Assembly: GCA_014382015.1 (NCBI GenBank)
Contig: JACNKN010000049.1
Coordinates: forward strand, 62,001-126,000
DNA from: Fidelibacterota bacterium
GTDB taxonomy: Bacteria; Fidelibacterota; Marinisomatia; Marinisomatales; TCS55
Direction of reading: 5' to 3'
DNA length: 64,000 nt
Shown: in pieces, positions 487 through 46,360 of the stretch
How the letters are laid out: the number at the start of each line of letters is the position of its first letter
How positions within the stretch are numbered: the first letter of the stretch is position 1
Notes under the pieces: model-generated
Told to the model about the DNA's origin: nothing
The model's input: the letters and a program-made list of their open reading frames with translations, nothing else
The model's database searches: none
Translations under genes and position numbers: made by a program

Positions 487-2059
487 AAGTTGCCTTTTCT
501 TTTGTGGGTGTTTTTTGTCCATTTAATTGTCCATTCGATTTTATAGCGCCATTGCCATTTTGAGATACAAATCCATAAGGCGTGGGCATGGGTACTTTAT
601 TCGGTACATTGCCATTCTGCCAATGCTTCACTTCGTGGGTCTCACGATACAATACATTGTATGCATCAAATGGGATGGTCCGTCCATCAGGCATGGCAAA
701 ACCAATGCAGCATTTTTTCACCACCTTCATATCCCAGTTATACTTATCCTGGAACTGAATCATAATAATGCGAAATGCATTTTCGTCGGCAATTTTCTGG
801 CGCCCTTTTTCTGTAAAGAAATCCTTTTTCACTGGGATGCCACAAACGCAGGAAAAATCGTAGAGTGTCTTCATAGAGTTAAAACTGGATGAAGCAGACC
901 ACAATCCTTCGATGGCCTTTTTATAAATAGGCCGGGGATCCGTATAAATGGTATTAATAAATTGATCCATATAAGGATCCAGATCGATAAAGCGGGGGAT
1001 GGGTTTTACTTTTTTTCCCTTAATGTAGGCATAAGTGAGTGCAATCTCGGAGGGATGGCTGCAGGGCAATGGCATAAAATCTGTTTTGCGGAACATGCCG
1101 TCGGTCTGTTTTTCCAACCGATCCATAATCTCCGTATTGGTGACGCGGTCCATGGGATTCATATCATGATCATAGCGCCCGGCGAAAAATGCAGGCTGAA
1201 AATTCACACCGCGGATACCCTTGGTTTCAATGCCAAATTCTACAATTTTACCCACTTGATCTTCATTCACTCCCCGCTGAATCACCGATGCCAAATTAAT
1301 GGGCAAACCATGTTTCAGCATATTTTCGATCGCTTTCATTTTAATGTCCGCCAACTTCGCCCCGCGAATGGCTTGATGCACCTCATCTGTGAAACCGTCA
1401 AACTGGAGGTAGATTTCTAATTTATTTTCACTCACATCCACCAGTCGTTTAATCAAATCTTCATCTTGGGCGAATTTGATTCCGTTGGTGTTAATCATCA
1501 CCACTTCTGTGGGGCGATCCACCGCTTCTTTCACTGCTTCTACTATTTGGGGATGCATGGTGGGTTCACCGCCGGAGAATTGAATCACAGCGCCCACGCC
1601 CTCCTGCGCGATGAAGCCATCCAAGGATGCTTTAATCTGATCCATAGTAAGATAGGCAGATCCTTTGCTGTCGGCAAAACAGGTGGGACAGGCCAAGTTA
1701 CAATCGTCTGTCAGATCAATGAGGCCGAGACACATGTGCTGTTCGTGGTCCGGACAAACACCACAATCGTAGGGGCAGCCTCGTTCGACCGCTGTGGGGA
1801 ATTTTAGGGGAATGTCGCCGGGACGATTATACTTCTGGGCATGGAGGTACCAATCCGCATCAGAATGAAGGAGACAGGATTCAAAGCCGTGTTCACGGCA
1901 CCATTTACGGAGGACTATTTTATTATCGTCAGTTCGGATGATCTTCGCATCCACCACGCGCAAACATTTAGAACACAAACTTTGGGTGTGTTCCAGATAC
2001 ACATAATTCCGCCGTTTCCGGGGGTTATCTAATATATTGGTCTTTTCTACAGAAAACAT
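479..2059 (-). CDS. Radical SAM enzyme of the class D / tetraether synthase (Tes)-like family
   Basis: 526 aa. The radical SAM cluster motif CxxxCxxC is C120, C124, C127 (DDCNLACPTCFAD), with GGEP at 163-166. Before it are a possible rubredoxin-like metal site (C29, C32, C54, C62) and a second Cys group (C95, C99, C102, C110; CPYDCGVCPDHEQH); more Cys occur near the C-terminus (CVCG, KCC). Length and Cys layout match the class D radical SAM family typified by Methanocaldococcus MJ0619, known as tetraether synthase, which joins lipid tails by C-C bonds; bacterial relatives are implicated in membrane-spanning lipids. Lipid substrate here is inference. ATG at 2059 has an AAGG SD. It overlaps the next gene (ATG at 486). 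Alternative: another class D radical SAM reaction such as methyl transfer. Confidence 0.85.
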   Translation of the reverse strand: MFSVEKTNILDNPRKRRNYVYLEHTQSLCSKCLRVVDAKIIRTDDNKIVLRKWCREHGFESCLLHSDADWYLHAQKYNRPGDIPLKFPTAVERGCPYDCGVCPDHEQHMCLGLIDLTDDCNLACPTCFADSKGSAYLTMDQIKASLDGFIAQEGVGAVIQFSGGEPTMHPQIVEAVKEAVDRPTEVVMINTNGIKFAQDEDLIKRLVDVSENKLEIYLQFDGFTDEVHQAIRGAKLADIKMKAIENMLKHGLPINLASVIQRGVNEDQVGKIVEFGIETKGIRGVNFQPAFFAGRYDHDMNPMDRVTNTEIMDRLEKQTDGMFRKTDFMPLPCSHPSEIALTYAYIKGKKVKPIPRFIDLDPYMDQFINTIYTDPRPIYKKAIEGLWSASSSFNSMKTLYDFSCVCGIPVKKDFFTEKGRQKIADENAFRIIMIQFQDKYNWDMKVVKKCCIGFAMPDGRTIPFDAYNVLYRETHEVKHWQNGNVPNKVPMPTPYGFVSQNGNGAIKSNGQLNGQKTPTKEKATYE

Positions 2060-2066
2060 GGTTGCC
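2028..2066 (-). repeat. Direct repeat copy A: translation start of the radical SAM gene
   Basis: 39 bp covering the SD end, ATG and first 11 codons (MFSVEKTNILD) of the radical SAM gene. It recurs at 2283-2321 with two mismatches. The two copies bracket the 104-bp palindromic element at 2177-2280. Confidence 0.85.
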
Positions 2067-2176
2067 TTTCCATTTTTGTTCTTATTCGTCCCCCAATAGT
2101 TTTATCGCTCAATATTTATGGATTACTAATCTCTATTTTGCATTCGGCCTAGGAAACTTTCTCTTCCATTTTTTAA

Positions 2177-2280
2177 ATCCCCTTTGTGTTCCCCCACAAT
2201 GGGGAAAATTAAAAGGACAAATCCAATCGCCATATTATTTCTTCCCCAATGTGGGGAAGATGCCGAAGGCAGATGGGGAT
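2177..2280. repeat. Palindromic MITE/REP-like element, copy 1
   Basis: 104 bp bounded by ATCCCC and GGGGAT. It contains nested palindromes (TTCCCCCACAATGGGGAA-like on the left, CTTCCCC-AATGT-GGGGAAG on the right) and the tail GATGCCGAAGGC. A second copy at 13609-13710 shares both ends but has a diverged middle. No coding capacity, so a non-autonomous mobile or REP-type element. Confidence 0.8.
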
Positions 2281-2282
2281 TG

Positions 2283-2321
2283 TCTAATATATTCGTCTGT
2301 TCTACAGAAAACATGGTTGCC
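2283..2321 (-). repeat. Direct repeat copy B: orphan radical SAM gene start
   Basis: 37 of 39 bases match 2028-2066. On the minus strand it encodes MFSVEQTNILDN from an ATG at 2314, with a better SD (AAGGGTGG) than copy A. This suggests the gene once started here and the start was duplicated when the palindromic element arrived. Confidence 0.8.
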
Positions 2322-2442
2322 ACCCTTTTGTCTATTTGCAAAATTCTCTCGAAAATCTCTCCACCAAATTTAAATCATTGAATCAAATTGGATTGAATAA
2401 ATGCCTTCTTTTCATTTAAGGACTAAAAATTAACTATACTGA

Positions 2443-2979
2443 TTATTCATTTGTAATTTTCCAACCATTTTCACCCAATGAATAGGTTTGAGTTTTCTTT
2501 TCTTTGTAACCGATCCCTGCCCCTACAATGCCGAAAGCAACCCCATCCACGGCGGCACACATGGGGACTGTTAAAGCCAAATAATGGTAATATCCCTCAT
2601 AAGATCCCAAGACAGCGCCCACTGCGACTCCAACCATCCCGCCAGTCTTTAATCCTTTGAGTCCGCGTTCTTTCATTTTCGTCCCAGTGATATAATTGAT
2701 AGCACTAACGTCACCTAAGGGAAGAGAACTATTTTCCAAAAGAAGTGTTTGGGATGCCATATCCACAGACTTGTAGGTATAAATTTTATCATTGATGATG
2801 ATTTGTTTGCCCGGTTGAATTTCAAACGTGTCATTCTCTTTTTCCAAGATTAAAGAAACACCATTCTCGTTTCCATAAAGAAAAGGGCCAGAAAGGTGCA
2901 CCGTCTCCGACTCAAGAATTCCAATAGTTAAAGCTGTGGCAATCATCCCGGTGATGAGAGATTTATTTTTAATATTCAA
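2443..2979 (-). CDS. Small membrane protein, paralogue of the left-edge gene
   Basis: 178 aa, likely TTG start. N-terminal hydrophobic segment (8-25), a polar beta-rich domain (30-95), then glycine-rich hydrophobic segments (about 112-127 and 140-157) typical of glycine-zipper or two-helix membrane proteins, and a charged tail. Same layout as the protein at 1-486. No family recognised. Its place beside the Tes-like radical SAM enzyme suggests a membrane-related role, but that is inference. Confidence 0.75.
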   Translation of the reverse strand: MNIKNKSLITGMIATALTIGILESETVHLSGPFLYGNENGVSLILEKENDTFEIQPGKQIIINDKIYTYKSVDMASQTLLLENSSLPLGDVSAINYITGTKMKERGLKGLKTGGMVGVAVGAVLGSYEGYYHYLALTVPMCAAVDGVAFGIVGAGIGYKEKKTQTYSLGENGWKITNE

Positions 2980-3042
2980 ACTATGTTTCTCTAATTATAC
3001 CTATCAGCTACTTTGATACTACCCATATTGCTGCTTCCTTAA

Positions 3043-4164
3043 CTAAAATTTGTAGTAGAAAGCGATCCACGGTCGTTGAAAATGAATCCCAATTTGAAGA
3101 CTTTCGCTATAAGCGTATATGAATCCGAAATCGAAATCAACTTCAGTTATTTCTTTATTATCAGCAAATTCTAAAGCGGAAGCCCAGTAGGGATCATAGA
3201 ATGCTTCAAAGATGAGTTTCAGATTTCGCCTCGCGTCCGCATGAATGGCATAATAAGCTCTGGGCATGGGATCATAGCCGGGATAAGTTGTAAGGGTCGC
3301 ACCAATTGTATGATTCACTCTCCCCTGTCCCGACTTTTTTAAATTGGATATGGTGTAGGCTGCAAAATATTCCATCCACATTTTATCACCGCCGCGGTCT
3401 TCATCGAATAAATATCCTTCTTCTCCTACTCGTCGCCATTCATTTCGTGGTTCATACCAGGTTGTATCCGTTTCATTCTCCCAGTTAACGCTATAGTCTT
3501 TCACTGTTTTCAATTCATATTTAGAAGGATATCCCCGCATATGAAAATGACCACCAATAGCAAAAGCATGTTCCGATTTTAACGTCCCTTTTTTAAATAC
3601 CGTATATTTGGGTCTAAAATTTAAATCACCCAAAAAGTAGCCACCCCATTTAGAGGTAATCTGAAATCGGTCTGATAAACCATATCCCCATGATAAAAGG
3701 CTTAAATACAAAACATTATCCCCCACTGTATATCCCGTGGGGTCAAAGTAAACATCAATCAATCTTTCTTTACCATAATACCAGCGGCCATCTTCCGTTT
3801 GACCGGGCCTTTTAAATCCACGCCCCACGGCACCCATACTTTTAAAATCAATCCGTTCAATCTTTTCTTTCGATATGGATACTTCTCCAAATTGCGCTTT
3901 GACTTTGATGCCTTCATCACTTTCAGATAAAATAACACCTTTCAGTTTGTCACCAGATTTCAGATAAACAATGGCTTCTTCCGGTTTAATGTCTTTTTTA
4001 TTAATGGTAACGGAGCCAAAAGTAGTTTCAATGGCATAAGTAGAATCGGTTTCGGCTGTAAGTGTGCCAGAAACTTTATCACCAGATTTGAGAAAAAATG
4101 TTTTTTCCTGGGCATAAATGATCCCGGAATACAAAAGAATGATTATTAATATTGATTTTTTCAT
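3043..4164 (-). CDS. Secreted or outer-membrane protein with two tandem SGDK repeats
   Basis: 373 aa from the ATG at 4164, which has an AAAGGA SD 7 nt upstream; longer frames lack this. Signal peptide at 1-18 (ends YAQ). Residues about 20-110 hold two tandem ~45-aa beta units (FLKSGDKVSGTL... and YLKSGDKLKGVI...), each ending in a KKDI/KEKI turn, similar to small barrel repeats of periplasmic proteins. The C-terminal ~250 aa are rich in alternating hydrophobic/aromatic residues and end in Phe (AFYYKF), typical of an outer-membrane barrel. Divergent from the HTH-PAS regulator, which may control it (inference). Confidence 0.8.
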   Translation of the reverse strand: MKKSILIIILLYSGIIYAQEKTFFLKSGDKVSGTLTAETDSTYAIETTFGSVTINKKDIKPEEAIVYLKSGDKLKGVILSESDEGIKVKAQFGEVSISKEKIERIDFKSMGAVGRGFKRPGQTEDGRWYYGKERLIDVYFDPTGYTVGDNVLYLSLLSWGYGLSDRFQITSKWGGYFLGDLNFRPKYTVFKKGTLKSEHAFAIGGHFHMRGYPSKYELKTVKDYSVNWENETDTTWYEPRNEWRRVGEEGYLFDEDRGGDKMWMEYFAAYTISNLKKSGQGRVNHTIGATLTTYPGYDPMPRAYYAIHADARRNLKLIFEAFYDPYWASALEFADNKEITEVDFDFGFIYAYSESLQIGIHFQRPWIAFYYKF

Positions 4165-4212
4165 GGTTTTTCCTTTACAAATCTCCATCCTAATTATCAA
4201 TTAAGTTGAAGA

Positions 4213-4235
4213 ATTATTCATATTACTTGAATAAT
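4213..4235. promoter_or_regulatory. Inverted repeat in the divergent promoter region
   Basis: ATTATTCA-7 nt-TGAATAAT, a perfect 8-bp dyad between the SGDK-repeat gene and the HTH-PAS regulator. It is a plausible operator for the regulator or an autoregulatory site; no direct proof. Confidence 0.4.
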
Positions 4236-4274
4236 ATTACAGATTATGTTAATTTATTTCAAGTATTATTTAAG

Positions 4275-4307
4275 AATATGACAAAAGATTTAACAATATG
4301 ACAAAAG
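4275..4307 (+). repeat. Direct repeat making a 7-codon upstream ORF before the HTH-PAS gene
   Basis: AATATGACAAAAG occurs at 4275-4287 and 4295-4307. The first ATG (4278) opens MTKDLTI and stops at a TGA (4299-4301) that overlaps the real ATG (4298) as ATGA. This is a small leader peptide potentially coupled to the regulator, or simply a duplicated start. Confidence 0.5.
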
Positions 4308-4990
4308 TTCAAGAAATTATCTCTCAAGTAATGACCCATGAAGGCTATCGCCATAAATATGAAGTGGCAGAATATTTTGGCGTCACACCCCAGGCGCTGA
4401 GCACTTGGCTCACCACAGGCCGAATTCCATCGAAACATTTACTCAAAGTTCGGTCAGAAATTCAAACGCCTGATTTACCCCCTGCTATTGATCCCACAAT
4501 GGAAGATAAACAGACGGTTATTGATTATTTCGTCAATGAAAATGTGCGTCTAAAAAATGAGATCGCTCAACTAAAAAGTAAAGTTCACAATCTCCAATCA
4601 TCAAAAAGCAAAGATGATTTAATTGAGCGAATCAATGCACGCTCTCTATTTATTGCCGGGCGGTTATCCGATGGTATCATTACGAATGTAAGTGGCGATT
4701 GGAAAAAGGCCATGGGTTACAACGAAACAGATTTGGTGGGGCATCGTTACGACGAAGATTTTATTCATCAAGATGAATTTGATCGAACCCAACGCCATCG
4801 TGAGATTCTACAAGATTCTACAGGAATAAAAGAAACAAGATTTAGTACCATCCAGCGATGGAAAAACGGCCAGACCGGTAGTTATATGATGCTAAGCATG
4901 GTCTGGTATGTGGATGTTGAAAACGATATGGTAGAAATTGTCGCCAAACCGATTGATAACGATTTTGGTGAAATGGGAATTATGAATTAA
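4298..4990 (+). CDS. HTH-PAS transcriptional regulator
   Basis: 230 aa, probably cytosolic. Residues about 5-50 form a helix-turn-helix of the phage CI/DNA-binding type (YEVAEYFGVTPQALSTWLTT). A short coiled coil follows (about 72-102), then a PAS domain (about 110-220) with the usual GxIxxVSxxWxxxxGY pattern (GIITNVSGDWKKAMGYNETD). PAS domains sense ligands, redox or oxygen; no cofactor can be named from sequence. Divergently transcribed from the 3043-4164 gene across an inverted repeat, and followed by a terminator. Confidence 0.85.
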   Translation: MTKVQEIISQVMTHEGYRHKYEVAEYFGVTPQALSTWLTTGRIPSKHLLKVRSEIQTPDLPPAIDPTMEDKQTVIDYFVNENVRLKNEIAQLKSKVHNLQSSKSKDDLIERINARSLFIAGRLSDGIITNVSGDWKKAMGYNETDLVGHRYDEDFIHQDEFDRTQRHREILQDSTGIKETRFSTIQRWKNGQTGSYMMLSMVWYVDVENDMVEIVAKPIDNDFGEMGIMN

Positions 4991-4993
4991 AGT

Positions 4994-5026
4994 GGAGGCG
5001 AAATATGCCTCTCCCCTACATTTTTT
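4994..5026 (+). terminator. Rho-independent terminator after the HTH-PAS gene
   Basis: GGAGGC-GAAATAT-GCCTC stem-loop followed by a run of six T (5021-5026), 4 nt after the stop codon. Confidence 0.65.
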
Positions 5027-5097
5027 ACCCGTAACCACCAGCATCCTGGTCCAGCCAGAGATTACATCGATGGGTAATTTCGTTATATTTGATTTAA

Positions 5098-5117
5098 AGA
5101 TGTAATTAATTACATCT
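5098..5117. repeat. Perfect 20-bp palindrome between convergent genes
   Basis: AGATGTAATTAATTACATCT, followed by CTAC. It resembles a degenerate member of the GTAGAGAC...GTCTCTAC-type palindromes (see 38011-38042). It lies 11 nt past the stop of the selenoperoxiredoxin gene and may also act as its terminator. Confidence 0.6.
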
Positions 5118-5128
5118 CTACACAGAAT

Positions 5129-5581
5129 TTACAATTCCGCTAAAATATCTTGGGCGTGTGTTTTGACCTTTACTTTTGGATACACATGTGAAATGTTTCC
5201 AGATTCATCAATCACATAGGTATATCGGAAAATGCCTTCGTATTCCCTGCCGTAGAGTTTCTTCTTTCCCCATGCACCATAGGCCTTAATCACATTCTTT
5301 TCTTCATCACTCAACATGAGATACTGAAAGCCCTGTTTTTCACTAAAGTTTTTTTGACGCTGAACTGAATCTGCACTCATTCCAATAATAACGGTATTTT
5401 TATCTTCAAATTTTTGGCGTTCATCCCGGAACCCCTGACCTTCAACCGTTCAACCAGGTGTACTGGCTTTTGGAAAAAACCATAAAACAACTTTCTTCCC
5501 TGAAAAATCACTTAAGGATACATCATTCCCATCTTGATCCGGGAGTGCAAAACTTGGTGCTTTGTTGCCTACTTCTAACAT
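5129..5581 (-). CDS. bcp: Selenocysteine-containing PrxQ/Bcp peroxiredoxin (TGA at the catalytic position)
   Basis: 150 aa if the in-frame TGA at 5452-5450 is read as Sec44. ATG at 5581 has a strong AGGAGG SD. The frame reads NKAPSFALPDQDG, then WFFPKASTPG-U-TVEGQGFRDE, then the rest of the thioredoxin-fold peroxiredoxin to LAEL. In the PrxQ/Bcp family the TPGC cysteine (Cys45 in E. coli Bcp) is the peroxidatic residue; here exactly that codon is TGA. The flanking residues are intact and there is no other lesion, which argues against a pseudogene. A SECIS-like hairpin follows. No resolving Cys five residues later, so a 1-Cys/1-Sec mechanism is expected. It reduces peroxides in the cytosol. 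SelA/B/C/D are not in this window. Confidence 0.85.
5416..5435 (-). promoter_or_regulatory. Bacterial SECIS-like hairpin for the TGA at 5452-5450
   Basis: In the mRNA, GGGGUUC pairs with GAACGCC (six pairs around one G-G mismatch), closing a 6-nt apical loop CGGGAU. The loop begins 21 nt after the UGA, within the 16-37 nt spacing described for bacterial SECIS elements, and a G lies in its first two bases as SelB recognition requires. It is inside the coding sequence. Confidence 0.7.
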
Positions 5582-5645
5582 TTTTCCTCCTTATGCTTCA
5601 TCGGTTATGGTAAACGGCAAAGAGGCCCGTCGAGCATCGTTTCCC

Positions 5646-6113
5646 TTAAACGTCTAACGATATTTCAGACCATCTCATTCGCTCATCATTATTCATCACC
5701 ATATCATAAACTATTTGAATACCTTCTTTTTGTCCATTCCATACCAAGGTATTCAAGGCTTCTTCAATGTCAACCCATTTGAAATCAACATGCTCATGGG
5801 AAAGAATAACCTTATCTGAATTTACCTCTATCCCAAAAACGGGCACAAGGTTAACGCGATCCCCATGGACTTCATAAAAACGACTCACATGATCCGCCAC
5901 AAACATATTCACAGGCTTCAGGCCTGTTTCTTCTTTCAATTCACGGATGGCCGTTTCCGATGCCGTTTCACCCGCTTCAATTTTCCCCGCCACGCCTTGC
6001 CAGAGGTGTTCATAAATTTTATTTTTGTTCCGTTTCAATAATAGAAATATTAAACCATGATCCGTTTTCAGGTAAATATAACAATCCACGACTCTGACTT
6101 TAATATCTGTCAT
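5646..6113 (-). CDS. Nudix hydrolase (NudB-like)
   Basis: 155 aa. A full Nudix box lies around residues 42-64 (GKIEAGETASETAIRELKEE), giving the Mg-binding REx2EE catalytic helix. The C-terminal part (HEHVDFKWVDIEEAL...W) resembles dihydroneopterin-triphosphate/dATP pyrophosphatases such as E. coli NudB. It hydrolyses a nucleoside diphosphate-X substrate; folate synthesis is possible but unproven. Last gene of the long minus-strand run, 7 nt after the multiheme gene. Confidence 0.85.
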   Translation of the reverse strand: MTDIKVRVVDCYIYLKTDHGLIFLLLKRNKNKIYEHLWQGVAGKIEAGETASETAIRELKEETGLKPVNMFVADHVSRFYEVHGDRVNLVPVFGIEVNSDKVILSHEHVDFKWVDIEEALNTLVWNGQKEGIQIVYDMVMNNDERMRWSEISLDV

Positions 6114-6120
6114 GAGATTA

Positions 6121-8715
6121 TCAATGTGTATGATGCAGTTGAGATTCGATCATGGCCCAGTCATGCGTTAAAATAAATGATGTTTTATGCGCAGGCGCTG
6201 AAGGATCTTTTTTATATTTAAGAAATTTCTTTTGGGCAATTTTAGCGTCTTTTTTGTTCCCCATAGCTTTATAACAAAGTCCTAAATTGAAATACACACC
6301 TGCTTGTTCAGGATCAATATCCAGTGAACGATTAAATAAACGTATTGACGATTGATAATTTCCCGATAAATAATGATTCCTCCCTAATTGGAATAATATT
6401 TTCCGGTCTTTCGGATATGCTGCCAAGACACGCGACAGATAGGTTTCAGCTTCCCCAAAACGCCCCTGCCGTTGTTTGATCATCCCAAGATAGGCCTTTG
6501 CCCGCAAGGAACTGGAATCCACATTTATCGCTTTGTCAATCCAAGCTTCTGCTCTTCCTAAAAATCCTTCATTTAAATTAGCCATAGCTGCATTGATGTA
6601 GGCTTCAGTGTAATCATTTTTAAGATTGATTGCTTCTTGGAATGCATCGATCGATTCAGCATATCTTTCCTGTCTGAATAATCCAATACCATACCGATTC
6701 AACCGTAAATGATCATTGGAATGGTGAATAAATGTTTCAGGGGACGTTGAAAAAACCAATGTGTCGGCACATAAATCCACAATAGGAAATTCTGGCGCAT
6801 CCCTGCCCAAAACCCATTCGGTATACCAACGGTTAAATCGGCGATAACGCACACGGGCTGACAGCGTAATTGGCGGTTTGGTTAATTCAGGTAAATCAAT
6901 TTTATAATGAATCACATCCGATGCCTGAGCCGGTATGGATCGATTAAATAGAATGGTTCTGTCATTCCACAAATCATGTTTCTGAATCCAATTTCCATCT
7001 TCTGTAATAGGAGGAGCAATAAATTGATGGGCAAAAGAATCGACATGTCCACTTTCATCAATTTTTCCACTGGCATAAATTTCTTTACCCTCCCCATCAG
7101 CTACGATGAATTCCAGCCAGGCTTCGTACAAATCAAGAGGACCTGTTGGAAAACTATGTGCAATATTATTGGTAACAGATACATCAATTATGACGGACTT
7201 ATTTAAAATAGATATAGGCATTTTTTCGTGAAGTGGTTTAATCACGCTATTGGATGACCCACTCTGTTTCATTGCAACTATATCTACAATTAATTCATCG
7301 CGCTGAAGCCACTCTTTGGTTTGTGCTAATTGAGAATCATATCCCCGGATAAATGGTATGGCGGTATTTGCAGCAATATACCTGTGAGATTTTACTTTAC
7401 CACCGCTCCCGGAAGGATCTTTGGACTCCACCTCTCTCATATGACAGCCATTACAAGTTTGAACTTCTTCCTGACGGTAAGCCAACACAGATTCACCGGA
7501 AAATCCGCTTTCCTGCCAGGGATCATATTGGTCCTGAAGCCGTAACCATCGATAATCATTGGTCATTTCATCAATCGATTGTTTATGGCACACGGCACAA
7601 TATTCTGATGTGGTGTAAAATGGTTTCATAAAGGTTTGTTTATGATGTTCCGGTTTTAACCGAATCAATAGATAATTGAGAAAAGATGGAATTTCCCCTT
7701 CCCTGTCCCAAAATAAATATCTTTCCGGCGGGTTATACACGTATTTTCCCGTCCCTTCCAAATCTCCTGAATCCTCAATGGAATGGCATACGATACAGGA
7801 AATTCCTTCATCCGGATGGTCGTTACGAATGGTTCCCTTCGAATCCATTTTACCAGACAATAAAGCCAGTGGATCGTGACATCCACCACAATACCGTGTC
7901 GCATCTGCACCTTCAGTTTCCGCCATATATTCAAGAGTATGTTTAAAGTAAATGTTATCCGTAGAAAACCGATGAACCGACTCCGACCATTGTTCATGAA
8001 TATCTGGGTGACAGTTTTCCTGTCCGCAACCATCAGAACCAGCCATTGTATTTTCATTGATAAACTGATTCCCCGGTGTAGTGGTCATACTGGGGGAAAA
8101 GGGATTTGAGCCGAATGGATAGGCATAATCATTTTTTACAATATATGTGGGTTCTTCATGAAGGTAGGTCCAACTTCCAAAAGCGGTTACAGCCAGGAAT
8201 AGGATCAAAAAAACACTACTTTTTAATAACCCAGAACCGGCACCGATCAATCGCCGTCTGACCATATTTCCAGTCGGGATCCATAAATGAAATCCTAAAA
8301 AGGCTAAAAACAAAACACTGACCAATATATGAGCCCAATAAATCAATGATGCCGATCCGGATATGCCGATAAAAATAAGGAGGATGCCACTCAAAAAGGA
8401 AAATAGAACAAATTGACCCGTAAAATGACCCACCTTTGAATCCATTGGTCGCATGAAATTTCTATGGCGGAGCCAATGTCGGATATAAAATAAGCTGATT
8501 AACCCACCCGCAGGAATACCAATTAGGGTATGAAAAAGCACATTAAATTGAACAAAAAATGACCCGGTTTCCCAAAAGAAACTGATGGCTCCAGAAACAA
8601 ATAAAAAAAGAAGTAGTCCCAAACTAACCAGGTATAAAGGTGAATCCCAGGACCGGTTGGCATATAGGGATGTCTGGTTTATCTCCTGATTTATTTTTTG
8701 GTAATATTTCCCCAT
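6121..8715 (-). CDS. Membrane-anchored multiheme cytochrome c with TPR domain
   Basis: 864 aa. About five N-terminal membrane segments (about 28-48, 55-80, 105-122, 125-145, 165-182). A periplasmic haem region follows: CX4CH (C230, C235, H236) and four CxxCH motifs at C276, C317, C373 and C421, similar to cytochrome c554-type domains. Then a beta-rich region, and at least four TPR repeats in the last ~190 residues. Periplasmic electron transfer is the likely role; partner and acceptor unknown. The CX4CH first motif is unusual and may bind haem through a modified ligation or not at all. It lies between the secreted nuclease and the Nudix gene. Confidence 0.85.
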   Translation of the reverse strand: MGKYYQKINQEINQTSLYANRSWDSPLYLVSLGLLLFLFVSGAISFFWETGSFFVQFNVLFHTLIGIPAGGLISLFYIRHWLRHRNFMRPMDSKVGHFTGQFVLFSFLSGILLIFIGISGSASLIYWAHILVSVLFLAFLGFHLWIPTGNMVRRRLIGAGSGLLKSSVFLILFLAVTAFGSWTYLHEEPTYIVKNDYAYPFGSNPFSPSMTTTPGNQFINENTMAGSDGCGQENCHPDIHEQWSESVHRFSTDNIYFKHTLEYMAETEGADATRYCGGCHDPLALLSGKMDSKGTIRNDHPDEGISCIVCHSIEDSGDLEGTGKYVYNPPERYLFWDREGEIPSFLNYLLIRLKPEHHKQTFMKPFYTTSEYCAVCHKQSIDEMTNDYRWLRLQDQYDPWQESGFSGESVLAYRQEEVQTCNGCHMREVESKDPSGSGGKVKSHRYIAANTAIPFIRGYDSQLAQTKEWLQRDELIVDIVAMKQSGSSNSVIKPLHEKMPISILNKSVIIDVSVTNNIAHSFPTGPLDLYEAWLEFIVADGEGKEIYASGKIDESGHVDSFAHQFIAPPITEDGNWIQKHDLWNDRTILFNRSIPAQASDVIHYKIDLPELTKPPITLSARVRYRRFNRWYTEWVLGRDAPEFPIVDLCADTLVFSTSPETFIHHSNDHLRLNRYGIGLFRQERYAESIDAFQEAINLKNDYTEAYINAAMANLNEGFLGRAEAWIDKAINVDSSSLRAKAYLGMIKQRQGRFGEAETYLSRVLAAYPKDRKILFQLGRNHYLSGNYQSSIRLFNRSLDIDPEQAGVYFNLGLCYKAMGNKKDAKIAQKKFLKYKKDPSAPAHKTSFILTHDWAMIESQLHHTH

Positions 8716-8728
8716 TTACAAAATACCA

Positions 8729-10888
8729 CTATTTCAATAAGATCATTTTTTGGGTAAGGATGGTTTCTCCCGCTTCCAATCGTGCAAAATAAATACCTGC
8801 CGGCATGGGTTCACCTTCATCGTTTTTACCATACCAAACCACCTTATTCGAATTAGGGATACCATGAACCAAGGTTGCCACTAACCGGCCATTAATGTCC
8901 AAAATATCCAATTGTAGGTGTGGCAATAATGCGTCCCCTAAAGAAAATTCGATCGTGGTGGACGGATTAAAAGGGTTTGGGTAATTCGTAAGTAATTTAA
9001 ATTTGTCCGGAAGTTCATCTCCTACTGCCGTTACAGGATCATTAAAATCGCCGCTATTTCTTGGCATAAGTTTATAGGTGCCATAAGAATAATGGAGTAC
9101 ACCGGTAATACTGATGAAATGGGTGCCATATTCAGGCTGGGGCCAGTCTCCATCAAACATATAACCATCCATCATTGCAGAACCTGTCCAGTCGGATACG
9201 AACCACTGGCCATTTTCATTTGTACTTTGGGTCACATCCACATTCACCAATCGCACCAACATACCTTCATATTTTTCTACCCACACACGACAGTCACCGG
9301 ATATACTGGCGGCCGTGACAGTAATGGGTTCAACTATATTGTTGCTGGACAAAATTTCCGCAGGGGCCAAATTCTTTATTTCTGTCATACCAAAATATTC
9401 TGAAATATCGCCTTTCAGTTTTACCAAGTCACCCACTGCTGGGGCATTATATCCTTTATTGATATACACAAACATACCCGCCCATTCGGTCCTATATGGA
9501 TCCTGAAAAAAGAAATTAGGATATTCCTGATCAGGACGGACCGCTGTAACCACGCCGGTAACTTCTACATTCTGTCCTTCAAATTCCGAAGGATAGCAAT
9601 TTTCCCCTGTGCCCTGATTCTCCGTGAATTGAATATCGTAAGGAGAATATCCGCCGATGATGGGAACTGTCACATTTACAAAATCTTTTGCCCATTCACC
9701 GTCGTTGTCTGTAACCGTCAGTTGGAATGTGAAAACAGTTGTGCGATTCACTTCCGGAACCACAAAATCAGCTTTTTCAGTTGTGGCATTATTGATATTA
9801 ACGTCCGGTCCCGAGGTCTGTGCCCATACGTAACTCACAATGCTTCCATTAGGATCATAACTTTGAGACCCATCTAATGAAACAGTTTCACCAATAGCAG
9901 AGACAACATCTCCACCGGCATGAGCCACAGGACTGGTGGACGATTTTGTTGTATAAGCAATTTTTGCCACAACCGGATAATGGTCCGATGCCAGATAGAT
10001 AGCTTCAGCGATGCTGTCCGGCACCGCGCTGTTTCCACCGTCAATGAGTGCTTTATCAAAATGATTTCCGTCATTCCCAATCACTGTGTAGGATCCTTCC
10101 ACATACTTCAAATCCGGATCACTTGAAGTAAAGTGTTCCGAAAAAAGAATAAAATCAAACCGATCATCCAATCCACCAGTGGAACCCCCATCTCCTAAAT
10201 GATCTGTCCGTGTGGATTGAGTATATTTAGTTACATGAGCACTTTCTTTCCGCACCCAATGCCCCACCACATCATCCAAATCCACCGTCATGCTGTCCGT
10301 TAATAATTTATAAGCCGGTTCATCCGTTCCATATAAATTGAAATCACCCCCAAATATATAATGATAATTTTGATCCTTTTGTGCCACATATTTATATAGT
10401 TCTTTTGCTTCTTCCCATCGCTGTTCCGATTCACTGGTTCCATCGCTTGCCTTCAGGTGAGCACCAAAAACCGTAAATGGATTTACATTAGAATGGGCAT
10501 TTTTTATGGAAAGTGTATAGCCGGGGATACTCCGAAGCACAGTAGAAATGACCACATCTTCCGATAAATCCAATTTGGATTTTCGATATATCATGCCGGT
10601 TTTCATCCATTGAGAACTGGGAAGCGTCCCTGCTGCGAATGCGGTACTGTCCACATTAAACACATCACTCAATAGTAAATCGATACCGCTTTGGTGTTCC
10701 AACTCTTCAAAAATCACGATATCGGGCTGTGCATAATCCATGACTTTTTTGATGGACAAAACACGCCCCGTTGTATTGCCTGAAAAGTGGAGCACATTAT
10801 AAGTCATAATGGTTAATGTATCCTGGCTGTAGATGCTCGAAGAAAGGATGATAAATATTAAAATTTTCTTTATGCGAAACACGTTCAA
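8729..10888 (-). CDS. Secreted endonuclease/exonuclease/phosphatase with PKD, OB-fold and T9SS sorting tail
   Basis: 719 aa; likely TTG start (GTG two codons on is possible). Signal peptide ends near SIYSQ (22). Residues about 25-315 are an EEP-family nuclease/phosphatase (TIMTYNVLHF, FGAHLKA, FGGDFNLYG, DHYPVVAKI). A PKD domain follows (about 320-410), then an OB-fold region like extracellular nucleases (about 425-620). The end is a FlgD/T9SS-type sorting domain starting YPNPFNPSTTIEF. It probably degrades extracellular DNA or phosphoesters after T9SS export, consistent with SprA and PorV in the same gene run. Confidence 0.85.
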   Translation of the reverse strand: MNVFRIKKILIFIILSSSIYSQDTLTIMTYNVLHFSGNTTGRVLSIKKVMDYAQPDIVIFEELEHQSGIDLLLSDVFNVDSTAFAAGTLPSSQWMKTGMIYRKSKLDLSEDVVISTVLRSIPGYTLSIKNAHSNVNPFTVFGAHLKASDGTSESEQRWEEAKELYKYVAQKDQNYHYIFGGDFNLYGTDEPAYKLLTDSMTVDLDDVVGHWVRKESAHVTKYTQSTRTDHLGDGGSTGGLDDRFDFILFSEHFTSSDPDLKYVEGSYTVIGNDGNHFDKALIDGGNSAVPDSIAEAIYLASDHYPVVAKIAYTTKSSTSPVAHAGGDVVSAIGETVSLDGSQSYDPNGSIVSYVWAQTSGPDVNINNATTEKADFVVPEVNRTTVFTFQLTVTDNDGEWAKDFVNVTVPIIGGYSPYDIQFTENQGTGENCYPSEFEGQNVEVTGVVTAVRPDQEYPNFFFQDPYRTEWAGMFVYINKGYNAPAVGDLVKLKGDISEYFGMTEIKNLAPAEILSSNNIVEPITVTAASISGDCRVWVEKYEGMLVRLVNVDVTQSTNENGQWFVSDWTGSAMMDGYMFDGDWPQPEYGTHFISITGVLHYSYGTYKLMPRNSGDFNDPVTAVGDELPDKFKLLTNYPNPFNPSTTIEFSLGDALLPHLQLDILDINGRLVATLVHGIPNSNKVVWYGKNDEGEPMPAGIYFARLEAGETILTQKMILLK

Positions 10889-35812: not shown

Positions 35813-36004
35813 TCAAGGGAGACCGACGGGTTTCCCCCCAATTGCCCATTCTCCAGGATTTGTTTCTTCGATGAGAACCCAATTACCATTACGTTTTTCT
35901 TCCCCGGTTACTTTCACCATCGCCTCAGTAACCTCATGGATCATTTCAGATTTCTGTTCATCGGTAAAAACGCCACGGACAATTTTAATAGTAGTTATAG
36001 GCAT
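35813..36004 (-). CDS. 4-oxalocrotonate tautomerase-family enzyme
   Basis: 63 aa from the ATG at 36004 (AAGGGTAATAAAT precedes). The start is set by MPITTIKIV: removal of Met leaves the catalytic Pro1 needed in this family. Small beta-alpha-beta subunit working as an oligomer, tautomerising keto-enol acids or related substrates. Last gene of the alpha/beta-barrel operon. Confidence 0.85.
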   Translation of the reverse strand: MPITTIKIVRGVFTDEQKSEMIHEVTEAMVKVTGEEKRNGNWVLIEETNPGEWAIGGKPVGLP

Positions 36005-36073
36005 ATTTATTACCCTTTTTACTTTTAGTTTATAAAAGGAAAGCATTCCACCAAGTGGCGGAATGCGTCACCA

Positions 36074-36457
36074 TTATTTGTGGTTATTTAAATAACCAAA
36101 TTTACCATACGCCAACTGGAAAGCAGCGAAAAGGAGAACTGTTGACCAACCCAGCGGACCGATTTCTCCTGATAATTGATTAACAATACTCACAGCTGCA
36201 CTAATACCAAAGCTAATGCTTAATGCTTTTGCCACCGCTGTTTTTGCATCGGAATCAGGTGCGTTACTCATAAACCATGTAATAAGCGCATATCCAATAT
36301 TAGCGGCACCAAACCATCTGGCCATCATGATAGAACCATCAATAATGTCCTGTGATAACCCATATGGCGCCAACGTAGCTGCAGGTGCGAAGATGAAACC
36401 AATGCCAAACAGTCCAGCCACCACTGTATTTATTTTGAAAAGTGTGTTAAGAGTCAT
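36074..36457 (-). CDS. Small four-helix membrane protein
   Basis: 127 aa with four hydrophobic helices (about 8-28, 40-62, 72-92, 100-118). Similar in size to DUF4345-type proteins. SD AAAAGGAG before ATG. Function unknown; same operon as the ABM-like genes. Confidence 0.7.
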   Translation of the reverse strand: MTLNTLFKINTVVAGLFGIGFIFAPAATLAPYGLSQDIIDGSIMMARWFGAANIGYALITWFMSNAPDSDAKTAVAKALSISFGISAAVSIVNQLSGEIGPLGWSTVLLFAAFQLAYGKFGYLNNHK

Positions 36458-36494
36458 TTTATTCTCCTTTTGGTTATTGATCCAATTGTCCCAT

Positions 36495-36553
36495 TAACCC
36501 CCGGCTTAAGCCGGGGGTTATGAAAGAAATGAGATCGAACCGCTTTAGCGGTT
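36495..36553. repeat. Perfect 26-bp palindrome plus second hairpin
   Basis: TAACCCCCGGCTTAAGCCGGGGGTTA (26 bp, 36495-36520) is fully symmetric. AACCGC-TTTA-GCGGTT follows at 36538-36553. They lie between the 250-aa secreted protein and the 127-aa membrane protein, 38 bp before the latter's start. A REP-type element or a terminator. Confidence 0.75.
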
Positions 36554-36563
36554 TATCGTTTAT

Positions 36564-37316
36564 TTAATTGTCTTCTGGCGTACTTAAATCTCTGCGCGTT
36601 TTGATTATTTCCCGCACACGATATTTCACCACTTTTTGGTAAATCGCATTTAATCGCTTGGCCTCTTCTTCACCTAATACATCATCCATACCCAACTGGC
36701 CCGCAGGCGATTGCATACTGCCTGATATTTCTTCCAAAGATTCTCCGGGATATTCCCAGACCCATGCATCAGGATATTTGCCAGAAGCCACACGATAGAT
36801 ATTATGAGAAAGGGGATCTTTATTGGCCGCCTTCGTCTTTTTTATTGCTTCTAAAAACTCGATATATTCACCATGGGCTCCGGGTCGAACCATATTGTAT
36901 GAATAATGCCAATAGGGGCCTTTTAATTTGGGGTTATAGCTCAAATCCTTTTCATAAACCATAAAACTAATCCCAGTGTTTGTACTATTATCCACATAAG
37001 GGGCAACGTATTTTTGCCAATGTTTAAAATCTTCTGGACTGCGAACGCGTTCATCCATGGCTTTGAACGTGTGTGGACCGGACCACCCCATCAATAAACC
37101 TGCATTAGGCCCTGTTAAAATATCGTGGTAATATTCTGGCCATTGGCCTTTTCCATGGAATTTTGCCACATGAGCTTTAAGACCTTCTTCTAGCTGAACA
37201 ATTTTCCCAGCGGCTGGTTTTAGGTACCATGTCCGCCATACATTGCCTTTTTCTTGTGCAAATAAGACGGCACATGTCATTAATGGGACTAAAATCCCCA
37301 TGATTCTTTTCATCAT
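36564..37316 (-). CDS. Secreted protein of the alpha/beta-barrel operon
   Basis: 250 aa. Signal peptide to about 20 (CAVLFAQ). The rest is helical and aromatic-rich with repeated W/Y motifs (WRTWYLKPAAGKI, WHYSYNMVRPGAH, ending KVVKYRVREIIK). Two similar halves suggest a dimeric alpha/beta-barrel-like fold as in ABM/NIPSNAP proteins. Exported, unlike its neighbours. Function unknown; SD AAAAGGAGAA. Confidence 0.7.
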   Translation of the reverse strand: MMKRIMGILVPLMTCAVLFAQEKGNVWRTWYLKPAAGKIVQLEEGLKAHVAKFHGKGQWPEYYHDILTGPNAGLLMGWSGPHTFKAMDERVRSPEDFKHWQKYVAPYVDNSTNTGISFMVYEKDLSYNPKLKGPYWHYSYNMVRPGAHGEYIEFLEAIKKTKAANKDPLSHNIYRVASGKYPDAWVWEYPGESLEEISGSMQSPAGQLGMDDVLGEEEAKRLNAIYQKVVKYRVREIIKTRRDLSTPEDN

Positions 37317-37360
37317 CGGTTTCTCCTTTTGGTTAGTTTATTGTTTATTTTATTTATACG

Positions 37361-37678
37361 CTAATTTATTCCGGTTACCTTACTCGGCCCATCCAGTACA
37401 TCAAATCCTTTATCAAAAAGATTGGTGAAATTCGGATTGTTGGCTAAAGCACCGGCGTAGAGTTCGCCACCTCGGTAAGCTTCACAGGCCTCTTTACTTT
37501 CCCATGAATAAACACCGCCGTAAGTGTTATTGGCTTCATCAGAGAGCCACACTTTAGAAATCAAACCGGGAAGGGCAGCAAAATGCGGTGCCACTTCATT
37601 GGCTACACCCATAAAGTCATCATGGGTAATACCTGCCAGATTAAAATTGACTACTTGGATGTATTTGATTTGACTCAT
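37361..37678 (-). CDS. YdhR-like monooxygenase family protein
   Basis: 105 aa. YIQVVNFNLAGITHDDF, PGLISKVWL and GGVYSWESKEACEAYRG match the YdhR/ABM dimeric alpha/beta-barrel family, thought to act on aromatic compounds. Cytosolic, no cofactor motif expected. Strong AAAAGGAGAT SD. Confidence 0.8.
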   Translation of the reverse strand: MSQIKYIQVVNFNLAGITHDDFMGVANEVAPHFAALPGLISKVWLSDEANNTYGGVYSWESKEACEAYRGGELYAGALANNPNFTNLFDKGFDVLDGPSKVTGIN

Positions 37679-37702
37679 ATTTATCTCCTTTTCTTGGTTT
37701 GA

Positions 37703-37990
37703 TTAATCACCTTTTGATATTGCATCCAAAGCCGCCTGCATGCTCATGACGGGGTGGATATCCGTATCACCCAATTCCAGTATTGGATCAAAAAATTGAA
37801 CGATTTGTTCCATAGAGTTTGCTTCCAGAATCATGTAAAAAACATGCCCTGGCGGGTCCACATATATACCATGGACGTTTATACCAATATCACCTGCGTT
37901 CTGAATGGTCTGCATCATTTTTGCTTTTTTGTTTTCATCATGGGCATGGCAGGTCTGGTAACTATGGGTATGGGTTGCATGAAATAGCAT
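37703..37990 (-). CDS. Small dimeric alpha/beta-barrel (DUF3303-like) protein
   Basis: 95 aa from the ATG at 37990, with AAAAGGAGAAACA SD; the longer upstream frame runs through a palindrome. MLFHATHTHSYQTCHAHDENKKAKM then a ferredoxin-like fold with QFFDPILELGDTDIHPVM. His- and Cys-rich N-terminus could bind metal. Role unknown; same operon. Confidence 0.75.
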   Translation of the reverse strand: MLFHATHTHSYQTCHAHDENKKAKMMQTIQNAGDIGINVHGIYVDPPGHVFYMILEANSMEQIVQFFDPILELGDTDIHPVMSMQAALDAISKGD

Positions 37991-38010
37991 TTGTTTCTCC
38001 TTTTGGTTTT

Positions 38011-38042
38011 GAGTAGAGACACGGCACGACGTGTCTCTACTC
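38011..38042. repeat. Perfect palindrome GAGTAGAGACACG...CGTGTCTCTACTC
   Basis: 13-bp perfect arms around GCACGA. It lies 21 bp upstream of the start at 37990. Member of the GTAGAGAC...GTCTCTAC palindrome family seen in many bacteria. Confidence 0.8.
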
Positions 38043-38128
38043 CACATTGTTAATTTCATTGGGGCCACCATAGGGGGTTATCAAGGATTTTGACCATAGA
38101 AGGATTGGTAGCCCCAACTGAATTTATT

Positions 38129-38968
38129 TTATCGTTTCGCCAGTTTTACCCAATTTGTATGGACAGCAATATCCTTATGACCCCAGGCAATATACTTATT
38201 ACGTTTTTGAAAAAAGGCTTTTCGTTCTTCTTCAACGGGCCATGCTTTTTCAATCGCTTCCTTACTTAAGCTATTATTATCCGCATCAACCATATTTGCA
38301 TATTCAGTTACATTATGAACAGGGATTTTTCCACCACCCAGAGAACCAGACCAATAATGTTTCAGTTCTCTTCGGCTGATTATTTTATCATTCTTCATGA
38401 CAACCTTTTTAAAATACTCATCAAATAATGCTTCCCTTTCTTCTATACTGCCACCTTCTACTTGACTCATGGGTTTAAGGTAATATTCTATAACTGTAAC
38501 GACTGAATTTTCCGTAATTTTCTTTTTATTCCTTTTTACCCGACTTGTAACCATTTCCATTACGGCCAGATCTGTATGTTTGCTTTGCCAGTATTTTCCA
38601 TAATCCTTAAAAAAGGCTTTTCGTTTTTCTTCATTTGGCCAGCCCTTTTTACGCATATCCCCACTACCTACTGTACTTTTATCTGCGTCAGCAATGGATT
38701 TCCATTCCCTAATATGAACAACTTCATTTAATGAACCAGACCAGCGATGGCCCAAGACCAAACTACTGATCATATCCTTATCTAAACGATTCATTATGGT
38801 TGATTCTTTTTCCATTAATTCACCCATTTTAGTCCAGGAACCATCTTCAACTTCATCCATGTCGTTCATGTAGTACATAGAAACTGTCACGACATGGTTA
38901 TCCGGGTTATACTGGCCGAATATGACACCTGTCATTACAACCAATGTAAATAGGATCTTTGTTTTCAT
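38129..38968 (-). CDS. Secreted protein with two tandem alpha/beta-barrel-like repeats
   Basis: 279 aa. Signal peptide to about 19 (MTGVIFGQ). Two ~120-aa halves are clearly homologous: VVTVSMYYMNDMDEVEDGS / VVTVIEYYLKPMSQVEGGS, HRWSGSLNEVVHIREW / HYWSGSLGGGKIPVHNVTEY, KRKAFFKDYGKYWQSKHTDLAVM / ERKAFFQKRNKYIAWGHKDIAVH. First gene of the operon; strong SD AAAAGGAGAA. Function unknown. Confidence 0.75.
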   Translation of the reverse strand: MKTKILFTLVVMTGVIFGQYNPDNHVVTVSMYYMNDMDEVEDGSWTKMGELMEKESTIMNRLDKDMISSLVLGHRWSGSLNEVVHIREWKSIADADKSTVGSGDMRKKGWPNEEKRKAFFKDYGKYWQSKHTDLAVMEMVTSRVKRNKKKITENSVVTVIEYYLKPMSQVEGGSIEEREALFDEYFKKVVMKNDKIISRRELKHYWSGSLGGGKIPVHNVTEYANMVDADNNSLSKEAIEKAWPVEEERKAFFQKRNKYIAWGHKDIAVHTNWVKLAKR

Positions 38969-38989
38969 TGTGTTCTCCTTTTCGTTTGT

Positions 38990-45487: not shown

Positions 45488-46360
45488 TCATGTTGTGATT
45501 TTGTTTGTTGATTGTTCATACTCATTTGGTGATTTGTAACCCAAATGTGAATGTTTTCTGACTCGATTATAGAATGTTTCGATGTATTGAAACAAGCTGG
45601 TTTTCGCTTCTGCCCGGGTTCGATATGTTTCGTGATAGACCCACTCTGTTTTAAGGGTATGGAAAAAACTCTCTGCTACAGCATTGTCATAACAGTTTCC
45701 TTTTCCGCTCATGCTCTGGATTGCTTCAAATGATTTCAGTAATTCACAAAAGTCACCACAGGCATACTGAACCCCTCTGTCTGAATGGAATATCAGACCC
45801 GGTAAAGGCTGATATTGTTTTACGGCCTGGATAAATGCCGGTATTGTTGTCGTATTGACCGTTAAGCGATCACTCATAGACCATCCCACAACCTTACGAT
45901 TGAATAGATCCAGTATTACAGTTAGATACAGCCACCCTTGCCATGTCCAGATATAGGTGATGTCACTCACCCAAATGCGGTTGGCTGCATTTGTCCAAAA
46001 ATCCTGTTTCAACAAGTTCGGTGCAATGGAGTAAGAATGATCAGAGTTTGTTGTTATTTTGAACTTTTTCTTCATCTTTGCCAAAATGCCGTTTTTATGC
46101 ATTAATCGAGCCACTCTTTGACGACTACAACTATATCCATTCTCCTTGAGTTCCTCTGTAATGCGGGGACTCCCATATGTCTGATGGCTGTTTTTATGAA
46201 TATCCCTAATCTCCTTAACCAGTGCCTTGTTCTCTTTAGAACGCTGACTTTCTGGACGATCATACCAATCATAGTATCCGCTCCTGCTTACTTTCAATAC
46301 CTGGCACATTTTCTTCACCGCAAATACGGAACGGTGAGCTTGAATAAACTCATACTTCAT
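45488..46360 (-). CDS. IS3-family transposase OrfB (DDE integrase domain)
   Basis: 290 aa. HTH_21-like N-terminus (YGSPRITEELKENGYSCSRQRVARLM) and rve core: WVSDITYI (D), FHSDRGVQY (D) and NAVAESFFHTLK (E, K). Start overlaps orfA stop as ATGA. Appears intact. Reading may also come from a -1 frameshift of orfA, as is usual in IS3. Confidence 0.93.
   Translation of the reverse strand: MKYEFIQAHRSVFAVKKMCQVLKVSRSGYYDWYDRPESQRSKENKALVKEIRDIHKNSHQTYGSPRITEELKENGYSCSRQRVARLMHKNGILAKMKKKFKITTNSDHSYSIAPNLLKQDFWTNAANRIWVSDITYIWTWQGWLYLTVILDLFNRKVVGWSMSDRLTVNTTTIPAFIQAVKQYQPLPGLIFHSDRGVQYACGDFCELLKSFEAIQSMSGKGNCYDNAVAESFFHTLKTEWVYHETYRTRAEAKTSLFQYIETFYNRVRKHSHLGYKSPNEYEQSTNKITT

What the first reader, a model, noticed from the sequence alone, without database searches (positions are those of the whole stretch)
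35813..38968. Operon of dimeric alpha/beta-barrel proteins with near-identical SD leaders
Five genes plus a tautomerase, two of them exported, share AACCAAAAGGAGAA-type leaders, and the first carries two copies of the fold in tandem. This looks like an uncharacterised detoxification or aromatic-degradation module.
Basis: partly seen in the sequence, partly recalled or inferred. Interest (0 to 1): 0.58.

Follow-up and report, generated by a model that had tools for sequence, protein, structure and literature searches.

The report
Barrel-protein operon with shared gene leaders
In an uncultured marine bacterium, two exported barrel-shaped proteins of unknown chemistry share an operon with small genes that, in related bacteria, each carry the same start signal, which suggests a small roaming set of co-controlled genes.

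Summary
The six genes are real and the leader similarity is far above chance. The 14-base leader AACCAAAAGGAGAA/T occurs exactly three times in the 2.54-Mb genome, all three in this operon. The protein description is partly right. g1 to g4 are dimeric alpha/beta-barrel type (g4 only tentatively); g1 and g4 are tandem two-domain exported proteins. g5 is a small hydrophobic, probably membrane, protein and g6 a tautomerase without the leader.

The main result lies outside the window. In related Marinimicrobia the leader is the 3' end of an ~86-nt promoter/5'UTR-like element. A covariance model found 19 copies in 13 of 245 genomes. All 19 end at the start codon of a small gene; 16 of those genes are relatives of g2, g3, g5 or g6. 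The element is absent from the window's own genome, where only its ~16-nt leader end survives.

g1-g4 is an older, Marinimicrobia-restricted pair. In a same-genus relative g4 follows g1 directly across a similar spacer, so g2-g3 look inserted. g3 and g6 are more alike across families than a housekeeping gene is. Quinone, aromatic or electrophile detoxification remains an inference.

The parts
38129..38968 (-). g1: 279-aa exported protein, two tandem ABM-like domains; no Pfam family
   Evidence: relatives in 18 of 61 genomes
38973..38986 (-). g1 leader AACGAAAAGGAGAA (1 mismatch)
38060..38118 (-). imperfect inverted repeat after g1; similar to the g1-g4 spacer of relative G006
   Evidence: sequence compared by eye
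38011..38042 (.). palindrome GAGTAGAGACACG...CGTGTCTCTACTC between g1 and g2, REP-like
   Evidence: by eye
37995..38008 (-). g2 leader AACCAAAAGGAGAA
37703..37990 (-). g2: DUF3303-family protein, 95 aa
   Evidence: PF11746 35.2 bits, cut-off 21.2; 6 of 61 genomes
37684..37699 (-). g3 leader, variant AACCAAGAAAAGGAGA
37361..37678 (-). g3: ydhR-family protein, 105 aa; closest to the C-terminal half of tandem-ydhR lipoproteins of relatives
   Evidence: PF08803 59.2 bits, cut-off 27.1; 88% to the second half, 77-79% to the first; 8 of 61 genomes
37321..37334 (-). g4 leader AACCAAAAGGAGAA
36564..37316 (-). g4: 250-aa exported protein, two ABM-like halves, member of an expanded paralogue family; no Pfam family
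36498..36517 (.). palindrome CCCCCGGCTTAAGCCGGGGG between g4 and g5, REP-like; similar blocks flank module genes in relatives
36462..36475 (-). g5 leader AACCAAAAGGAGAA
36074..36457 (-). g5: 127-aa small hydrophobic, probably membrane, protein
   Evidence: no Pfam family over cut-off; 8 of 61 genomes
36043..36066 (-). terminator-like hairpin between g5 and g6
35813..36004 (-). g6: 63-aa 4-oxalocrotonate-tautomerase-like protein, without the leader
   Evidence: PF01361 49.6 bits, cut-off 22; 7 of 61 genomes

Best explanation
This is a composite operon. Its core is g1 and g4, a pair of exported, tandem-duplicated ABM-fold proteins; g1 is found almost only in Candidatus Marinimicrobia. Into and behind this core came members of a small, patchily distributed gene set: DUF3303 (g2), ydhR (g3), a small hydrophobic protein (g5) and a tautomerase (g6). 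In relatives, members of that set sit behind copies of one shared ~86-nt promoter/5'UTR-like element. The element has an AT-rich box and a TATATT-like box, an ATCCC-N5-GGGAT inverted repeat, then CAAACCAAAAGGAGAA directly before the ATG, so the genes would be switched on and translated together, as one small regulon. The near-identical leaders in the window would be what is left of that element after the genes were put under one operon promoter; the g1 and g4 leaders, similar in relatives too, may have converged on it or been converted. Biochemically the most likely job is handling a reactive small molecule (quinone, electrophile or aromatic) by cofactor-free or metal-dependent ABM-type chemistry, outside the cytoplasm (g1, g4) and inside it (g2, g3, g6). 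SHOWN: gene families, tandem structure, leader specificity, the element at start codons in 13 genomes, patchy distribution, the g1-g4 neighbourhood in relatives. INFERRED: promoter activity, co-regulation, relic origin of the leaders, transfer, chemistry.
For: Leader unique to this operon in its genome. Among 3,735 ATG starts in 53 sources (the window and 52 loci), 17 rows (16 genes) match CAAACCAAAAGGAGAA at 14 or more of 16: 14 are starts of module genes, 1 is an internal ATG of a module gene, 1 is unrelated (most loci were chosen for holding module genes). Element: 14 copies in 9 of 61 genomes, 19 copies in 13 of 245; 19 of 19 end at a start codon; downstream g2 x3, g3 x4, g5 family x8, g6 x1, other x3. 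Six copies were not used to build the model: 6 of 6 end at an ATG, 5 of 6 before g3 or g5 relatives. Likeness drops at the element's edge: 116 of 136 pairs align within it, 22 upstream, 17 downstream. Transfer: to G043, g3 87% against MetRS 65%; to G052, g6 92% against 60%; the older g1 53% to G043. g4 follows g1 directly in G006, and g1/g4 relatives are neighbours in G012, G029 and G043. ABM fold of g1: Z 16.7 to 3mcs.
Against: No expression data. The full element is missing from the window's own genome, so the relic reading rests on 14-16 matching bases. g1 and g4 leaders in relatives are themselves similar and A-rich, so part of the likeness may be convergence or descent. The hairpin is only weakly supported: 79.6% of cells paired (3 of 500 shuffles reached this) but few two-sided changes, within what shuffles reach. 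For g2 and g5 the excess identity over MetRS is small (77-82% against 72-76%). The G006 g1 gene is split across two contig ends. No substrate or cofactor evidence.
Confidence: 0.55

Rival explanations
1. Ordinary A-rich ribosome-binding sites: the leaders look alike only because the genome favours AAAAGGAGAA before its genes.
For: SD-like sites are common, and g4 leaders in relatives are A-rich without being identical.
Against: 3 of 3 exact genome copies are in this operon; no other window gene exceeds 10 of 14; in relatives the match extends about 60 nt further upstream.
Confidence: 0.08
2. Gene duplication: the leaders are copies because the genes themselves are duplicates.
For: g1 and g4 are distant relatives (hhalign probability 88%); the g4 family has multiplied in tandem.
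Against: g2, g4 and g5 have the identical leader but no detected relationship between their products; in other genomes the element precedes a tautomerase, lipoprotein-like proteins and small hydrophobic proteins.
Confidence: 0.07
3. Integron or other site-specific gene cassettes: the leader is the conserved end of a recombination site.
For: Integron integrases over the curated cut-off in 12 of 61 genomes; in G011 a g5 relative lies in an array of 8 copies of a 29-nt repeat between small genes.
Against: No cassette-like repeat array in the 5 integrase loci scanned (one showed regular repeats that look protein-coding); the shared part lies upstream of genes with no general common sequence after them.
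Confidence: 0.12
4. The operon serves a catabolic pathway for an aromatic compound rather than stress or detoxification.
For: The tautomerase family includes 4-oxalocrotonate tautomerase; ydhR/ABM families include monooxygenases by annotation.
Against: No pathway enzyme was identified among the neighbours scanned (proline dehydrogenase, DAO-type oxidoreductase, S51 peptidase).
Confidence: 0.12

Closest known systems
YdhR family (PF08803; structures 2hiq, 1wd6, 2asy)
   Same: g3 scores above the Pfam cut-off and weakly matches the YdhR structures
   Different: In 5 relatives the homologue is a tandem two-domain protein (G005, G032, G043, G049, G111), mostly with a lipoprotein-like N-terminus; the window has one domain, most like the C-terminal half
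Tandem ABM-type putative monooxygenases 3mcs, 3f44 and marine metagenome protein 2pgc
   Same: Among the best fold matches of g1 over nearly all its length, Z 16.7, 15.8, 14.2
   Different: 6-10% sequence identity; g1 is exported; invariant His, Arg and His-x-Asp in both halves
Sulfur oxygenase reductase (2cb2)
   Same: Fold match Z 15.0, 218 residues aligned
   Different: g1 has no cysteine at all, whereas SOR needs a catalytic cysteine (recalled)
MhqR regulon (B. subtilis, S. aureus; PMC6798810, start of abstract and passages read)
   Same: Several quinone-response operons share an inverted repeat overlapping the transcription start
   Different: No MarR-type regulator was sought; a Crp/Fnr-type gene lies near only some copies
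Mobile promoters (passage in PMC8049555; Matus-Garcia 2012 seen only as a reference there)
   Same: Near-identical promoter-like sequence before unrelated genes
   Different: Here it is tied to one small set of gene families and is rare (1-4 copies per genome that has it)

Membership tests
ydhR (PF08803), g3 | profile score over the curated cut-off | tested here: met
   59.2 bits against 27.1; the NCBIfam equivalog PRK11118.1 was NOT reached, 38.2 against 103
ydhR (PF08803), g3 | monooxygenase activity (only putative for the family) | not testable with these tools
   needs enzyme assay
DUF3303 (PF11746), g2 | profile score over the curated cut-off | tested here: met
   35.2 bits against 21.2
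Tautomerase (PF01361), g6 | profile score over the curated cut-off | tested here: met
   49.6 bits against 22; TIGR00013 just missed, 56.2 against 56.9
Tautomerase (PF01361), g6 | proline directly after the start Met (catalytic Pro1, recalled) | tested here: met
   sequence MPITTIKI
ABM-type dimeric alpha/beta barrel, g1 | ferredoxin-like beta-alpha-beta-beta-alpha-beta domain, here twice | tested here: met
   AF2 pLDDT 81.6, pTM 0.77; Foldseek E 2.7e-9, Z up to 16.7
ABM-type dimeric alpha/beta barrel, g1 | Pfam ABM sequence family | tested here: not met
   no ABM match at E up to 1: fold relative, not a member of PF03992
ABM-type dimeric alpha/beta barrel, g4 | the same fold | tested here: inconclusive
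   pLDDT 52, 3-sequence alignment; weak profile link to g1
Sulfur oxygenase reductase, g1 | catalytic cysteine (recalled) | tested here: not met
   0 Cys in g1
Integron gene cassettes | attC sites next to each gene and an IntI in the locus | tested here: inconclusive
   no repeat array of that kind at 5 integrase loci; no attC model was run
Mobile promoter | near-identical promoter-like sequence upstream of unrelated genes | tested here: met
   19 of 19 copies at start codons, before several unrelated families
Mobile promoter | promoter activity | not testable with these tools
   no RNA data

The most novel reading that the evidence does not exclude
A travelling regulon: an ~86-nt promoter/leader is handed from gene to gene and from genome to genome among Marinimicrobia, tagging a fixed repertoire of small barrel, membrane, tautomerase and lipoprotein genes so that whichever of them a cell acquires answers the same signal. 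In the window the set has been absorbed into an older exported-barrel operon, keeping only the translation leader.
Probability: 0.3. Interest if true: 0.65.

Novelty: new variant of a known kind. Interest (0 to 1): 0.48.

Why it matters
g1 and g4 have no Pfam family at cut-off, and g4 relatives have multiplied into an array of seven copies in one genome, so Marinimicrobia export a family of ABM-like proteins whose chemistry is unknown. The shared element gives a concrete handle: it predicts which small genes are switched on together in an uncultured phylum, and it can be tested in existing marine metatranscriptomes.

Tried and rejected
Sequence searches of solved structures with g1 and g4 profiles gave nothing useful. 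Rfam found no family on the element loci over its gathering score. The Crp/Fnr-type gene next to g3 in G032 was tested as the regulator: 7 of 245 genomes at E 1e-20; the three best (G032, G005, G133) all have the element, but 10 of the 13 element genomes do not have it at that threshold, nor does the window's genome, so it is at most a candidate. The integron reading was followed through and not supported. Sulfur oxygenase reductase was considered from the fold and set aside for lack of cysteine. Literature: searches for DUF3303 + ydhR + monooxygenase, Marinimicrobia + antibiotic biosynthesis monooxygenase (none), Marinimicrobia + integron, dimeric barrel terms, methylhydroquinone + DoxX, mobile promoters, Marinimicrobia + transfer + operon and sulfur oxygenase reductase; among the titles and abstract starts listed I saw no description of this operon or element. 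Only passages of PMC8049555 and PMC6798810 were read. A palindrome scan for GTAGAGAC-N10-GTCTCTAC found 0 in the window, though a similar palindrome with another spacing lies at 38011-38042.

Limits: the element model was scanned with Infernal's stricter filters, so copies may have been missed. The 14 rows of A1 were picked by me from loci that hold module genes; one of them (before a g5-like gene in G043) did not pass E 0.001. In one search the g4 gene gave two rows (two ATGs). In one search, 17 of the 19 copies were used (two run off their contigs). The window's g1 upstream region gave only a weak match to the element (24.5 bits, E 0.41).
Full report
THE OBSERVATION. Six genes run on the minus strand from 38968 to 35813. 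In order: g1 (279 aa, signal-peptide-like start), g2 (95 aa, DUF3303), g3 (105 aa, ydhR), g4 (250 aa, signal-peptide-like start), g5 (127 aa, hydrophobic) and g6 (63 aa, tautomerase). g1, g4 and g5 have no Pfam family over its cut-off. The leader claim is real. AACCAAAAGGAGAW occurs exactly 3 times in the 2,538,686-base genome, all three here, before g2, g4 and g5; g1 has one mismatch; 13 places have at most one mismatch against 6 for the backwards control. In the window 8 places have at most 2 mismatches (shuffle mean 2.95; 0 of 100 shuffles reached 8). Of 56 called genes of at least 100 aa, none outside the operon exceeded 10 of 14. g3 has a variant leader and g6 does not have it.

THE PROTEINS. 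The two halves of g1 align with probability 100% and 37% identity; the halves of g4 with probability 90%; g1 and g4 to each other with 88%. The g1 model (pLDDT 81.6, pTM 0.77, 15 sequences) matches tandem ABM-type putative monooxygenases 3mcs (Z 16.7) and 3f44 (Z 15.8), sulfur oxygenase reductase 2cb2 (Z 15.0) and the marine metagenome protein 2pgc (Z 14.2). The g4 model is poor (pLDDT 52, 3 sequences) but its order of strands and helices fits two such domains. In 15 aligned g1 proteins (one of them a partial Zhouia match) the invariant residues include two matching sets, H74/R116/H131/D133 and H204/R249/H264/D266, which suggests that both halves keep a working site. g1 has no cysteine, so the sulfur oxygenase reductase mechanism is unlikely (the need for a cysteine is recalled). 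Of 15 named loci with g1 relatives, 12 are titled Candidatus Marinimicrobia or Neomarinimicrobiota, two are unnamed bacteria and one is a weak match in Zhouia.

WHERE THE GENES ARE. In 61 genomes (the window's own and 60 relatives): g1 in 18, g4 family in 16, g3 in 8, g2 in 6, g5 in 8, g6 in 7. Only the window's genome has all six together. g1 and g4 relatives lie close together in G012, in a second locus of the window's own genome (C69), in G029 and in G043, with a ~154-aa SnoaL/DUF4440-like secreted protein beside the C69 copy (below cut-off) and similar-sized proteins elsewhere. The g4 family has seven matches in one 7-kb stretch of G012. In G006, of the same genus, the end of g1 leads directly to g4 across a spacer that resembles the window's g1-g2 spacer (TTTAGTTGGGGCTGCC against TTCAGTTGGGGCTACC), so g2 and g3 appear inserted between g1 and g4 in the window; g1 of G006 is split over two contig ends, a caveat. 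g2, g3, g5 and g6 occur in other genomes in other combinations: G032 g3-g5-g2, G017 g2-g5, G024 g2-x-g6, and G011 with a g2 remnant before g6.

TRANSFER. Identity to the window's proteins, with methionyl-tRNA synthetase (MetRS) as yardstick: g3 87% in G043 (MetRS 65%) and 87% in G032 (72%); g6 92% in G052 (60%) and 90% in G027 (73%); g2 79-82% in G017, G024, G032 (72-76%); g5 77-78% in G017 and G032 (72-76%). The older g1 is 53% in G043 and 49% in G032. For g3 and g6 this is strong for transfer; for g2 and g5 it is suggestive only.

THE ELEMENT. Upstream of module genes in relatives the leader is the end of a longer shared sequence, roughly TCAAAATGCTA - T-rich tract - GAAAAATTCTATATTAA - ATCCC-N5-GGGAT - AAACAAACCAAAAGGAGAA - ATG. 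A covariance model from 14 examples found 14 copies in 9 of 61 genomes at E 0.01 and 19 copies in 13 of 245 genomes of the phylum at E 0.001, none in the window's genome. All 19 end at a start codon: g2 x3, g3 x4 (ydhR; one cut by a contig end), g5 family x8 (one cut by a contig end), g6 x1, and 3 others (two small hydrophobic proteins and a lipoprotein-like protein). Thirteen of these copies were in the training set; the six new ones all end at an ATG, five before g3 or g5 relatives. Likeness drops at the edges: 116 of 136 pairs match within the element, 22 of 136 in the 200 nt upstream and 17 of 136 after the genes, the latter two including REP-like palindromes and shared neighbours. The inverted repeat is kept in most copies (79.6% of cells paired, reached by 3 of 500 shuffles) but two-sided changes are few and within shuffled values; it may be an operator rather than an RNA hairpin. 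The layout resembles the MhqR regulon, where one inverted repeat at the transcription start is shared by several quinone-response operons (PMC6798810, passages read).

READING. The leaders in the window are best read as the surviving translation end of this element, kept when the genes moved into a g1-g4 operon. The g1 and g4 leaders were probably already similar (relatives: AAACCAAAAAGGAAAA before G006 g1, CACCAAAAGGAGAAACCG before a G012 g4 paralogue), so convergence or local gene conversion must have played a part. What the proteins do is not shown. The mix of ABM-type barrels, a tautomerase and small hydrophobic proteins points, by family knowledge only, to handling quinones, electrophiles or aromatics, with g1 and g4 acting outside the cytoplasm. 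I put that function at about 0.3 and the composite-operon and shared-element reading at about 0.6 to 0.7.

Noticed in passing
L065 (G000:C69:20000-36000) 5072-9661; L064 (G012:C2) 93-7335: Tandem arrays of g4-family secreted proteins with a g1 relative: 4 g4-family matches in a second locus of the window's own genome, 7 in G012.
   Followed up: partly
L130 (G011:C8) 3086-7410: Eight copies of a 29-nt repeat (AATGAAACGCCTCTGGCTCAAATA...) separate small genes, one of them a g5 relative; looks like a cassette array but lacks evident integron sites.
   Followed up: partly
L170-L177; G000:C76:2-415: Integron integrases over the curated cut-off in 12 of 61 Marinimicrobia genomes, with a fragment in the window's own genome; no cassette array seen at the five loci scanned.
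   Followed up: partly
L154, L149, L192: ydhR homologues in relatives are tandem two-domain proteins with a lipoprotein-like start; the window's g3 resembles their second domain.
   Followed up: partly
window 36498-36554; L124; L126: REP-like palindromes (AACCGCT..AGCGGTT, CCCCCGGCTTAAGCCGGGGG, GTAGAGAC..GTCTCTAC) flank module genes in several genomes and might help them recombine.
   Followed up: no
window 45488-46360: An IS3-type transposase ORF (by eye) lies a few kilobases from the operon.
   Followed up: no
L122, L123, L135, L121: Element-led genes often sit beside a DUF1761 membrane protein and an Asparaginase_2 protein with a twin-arginine-like start, a shared neighbourhood.
   Followed up: partly
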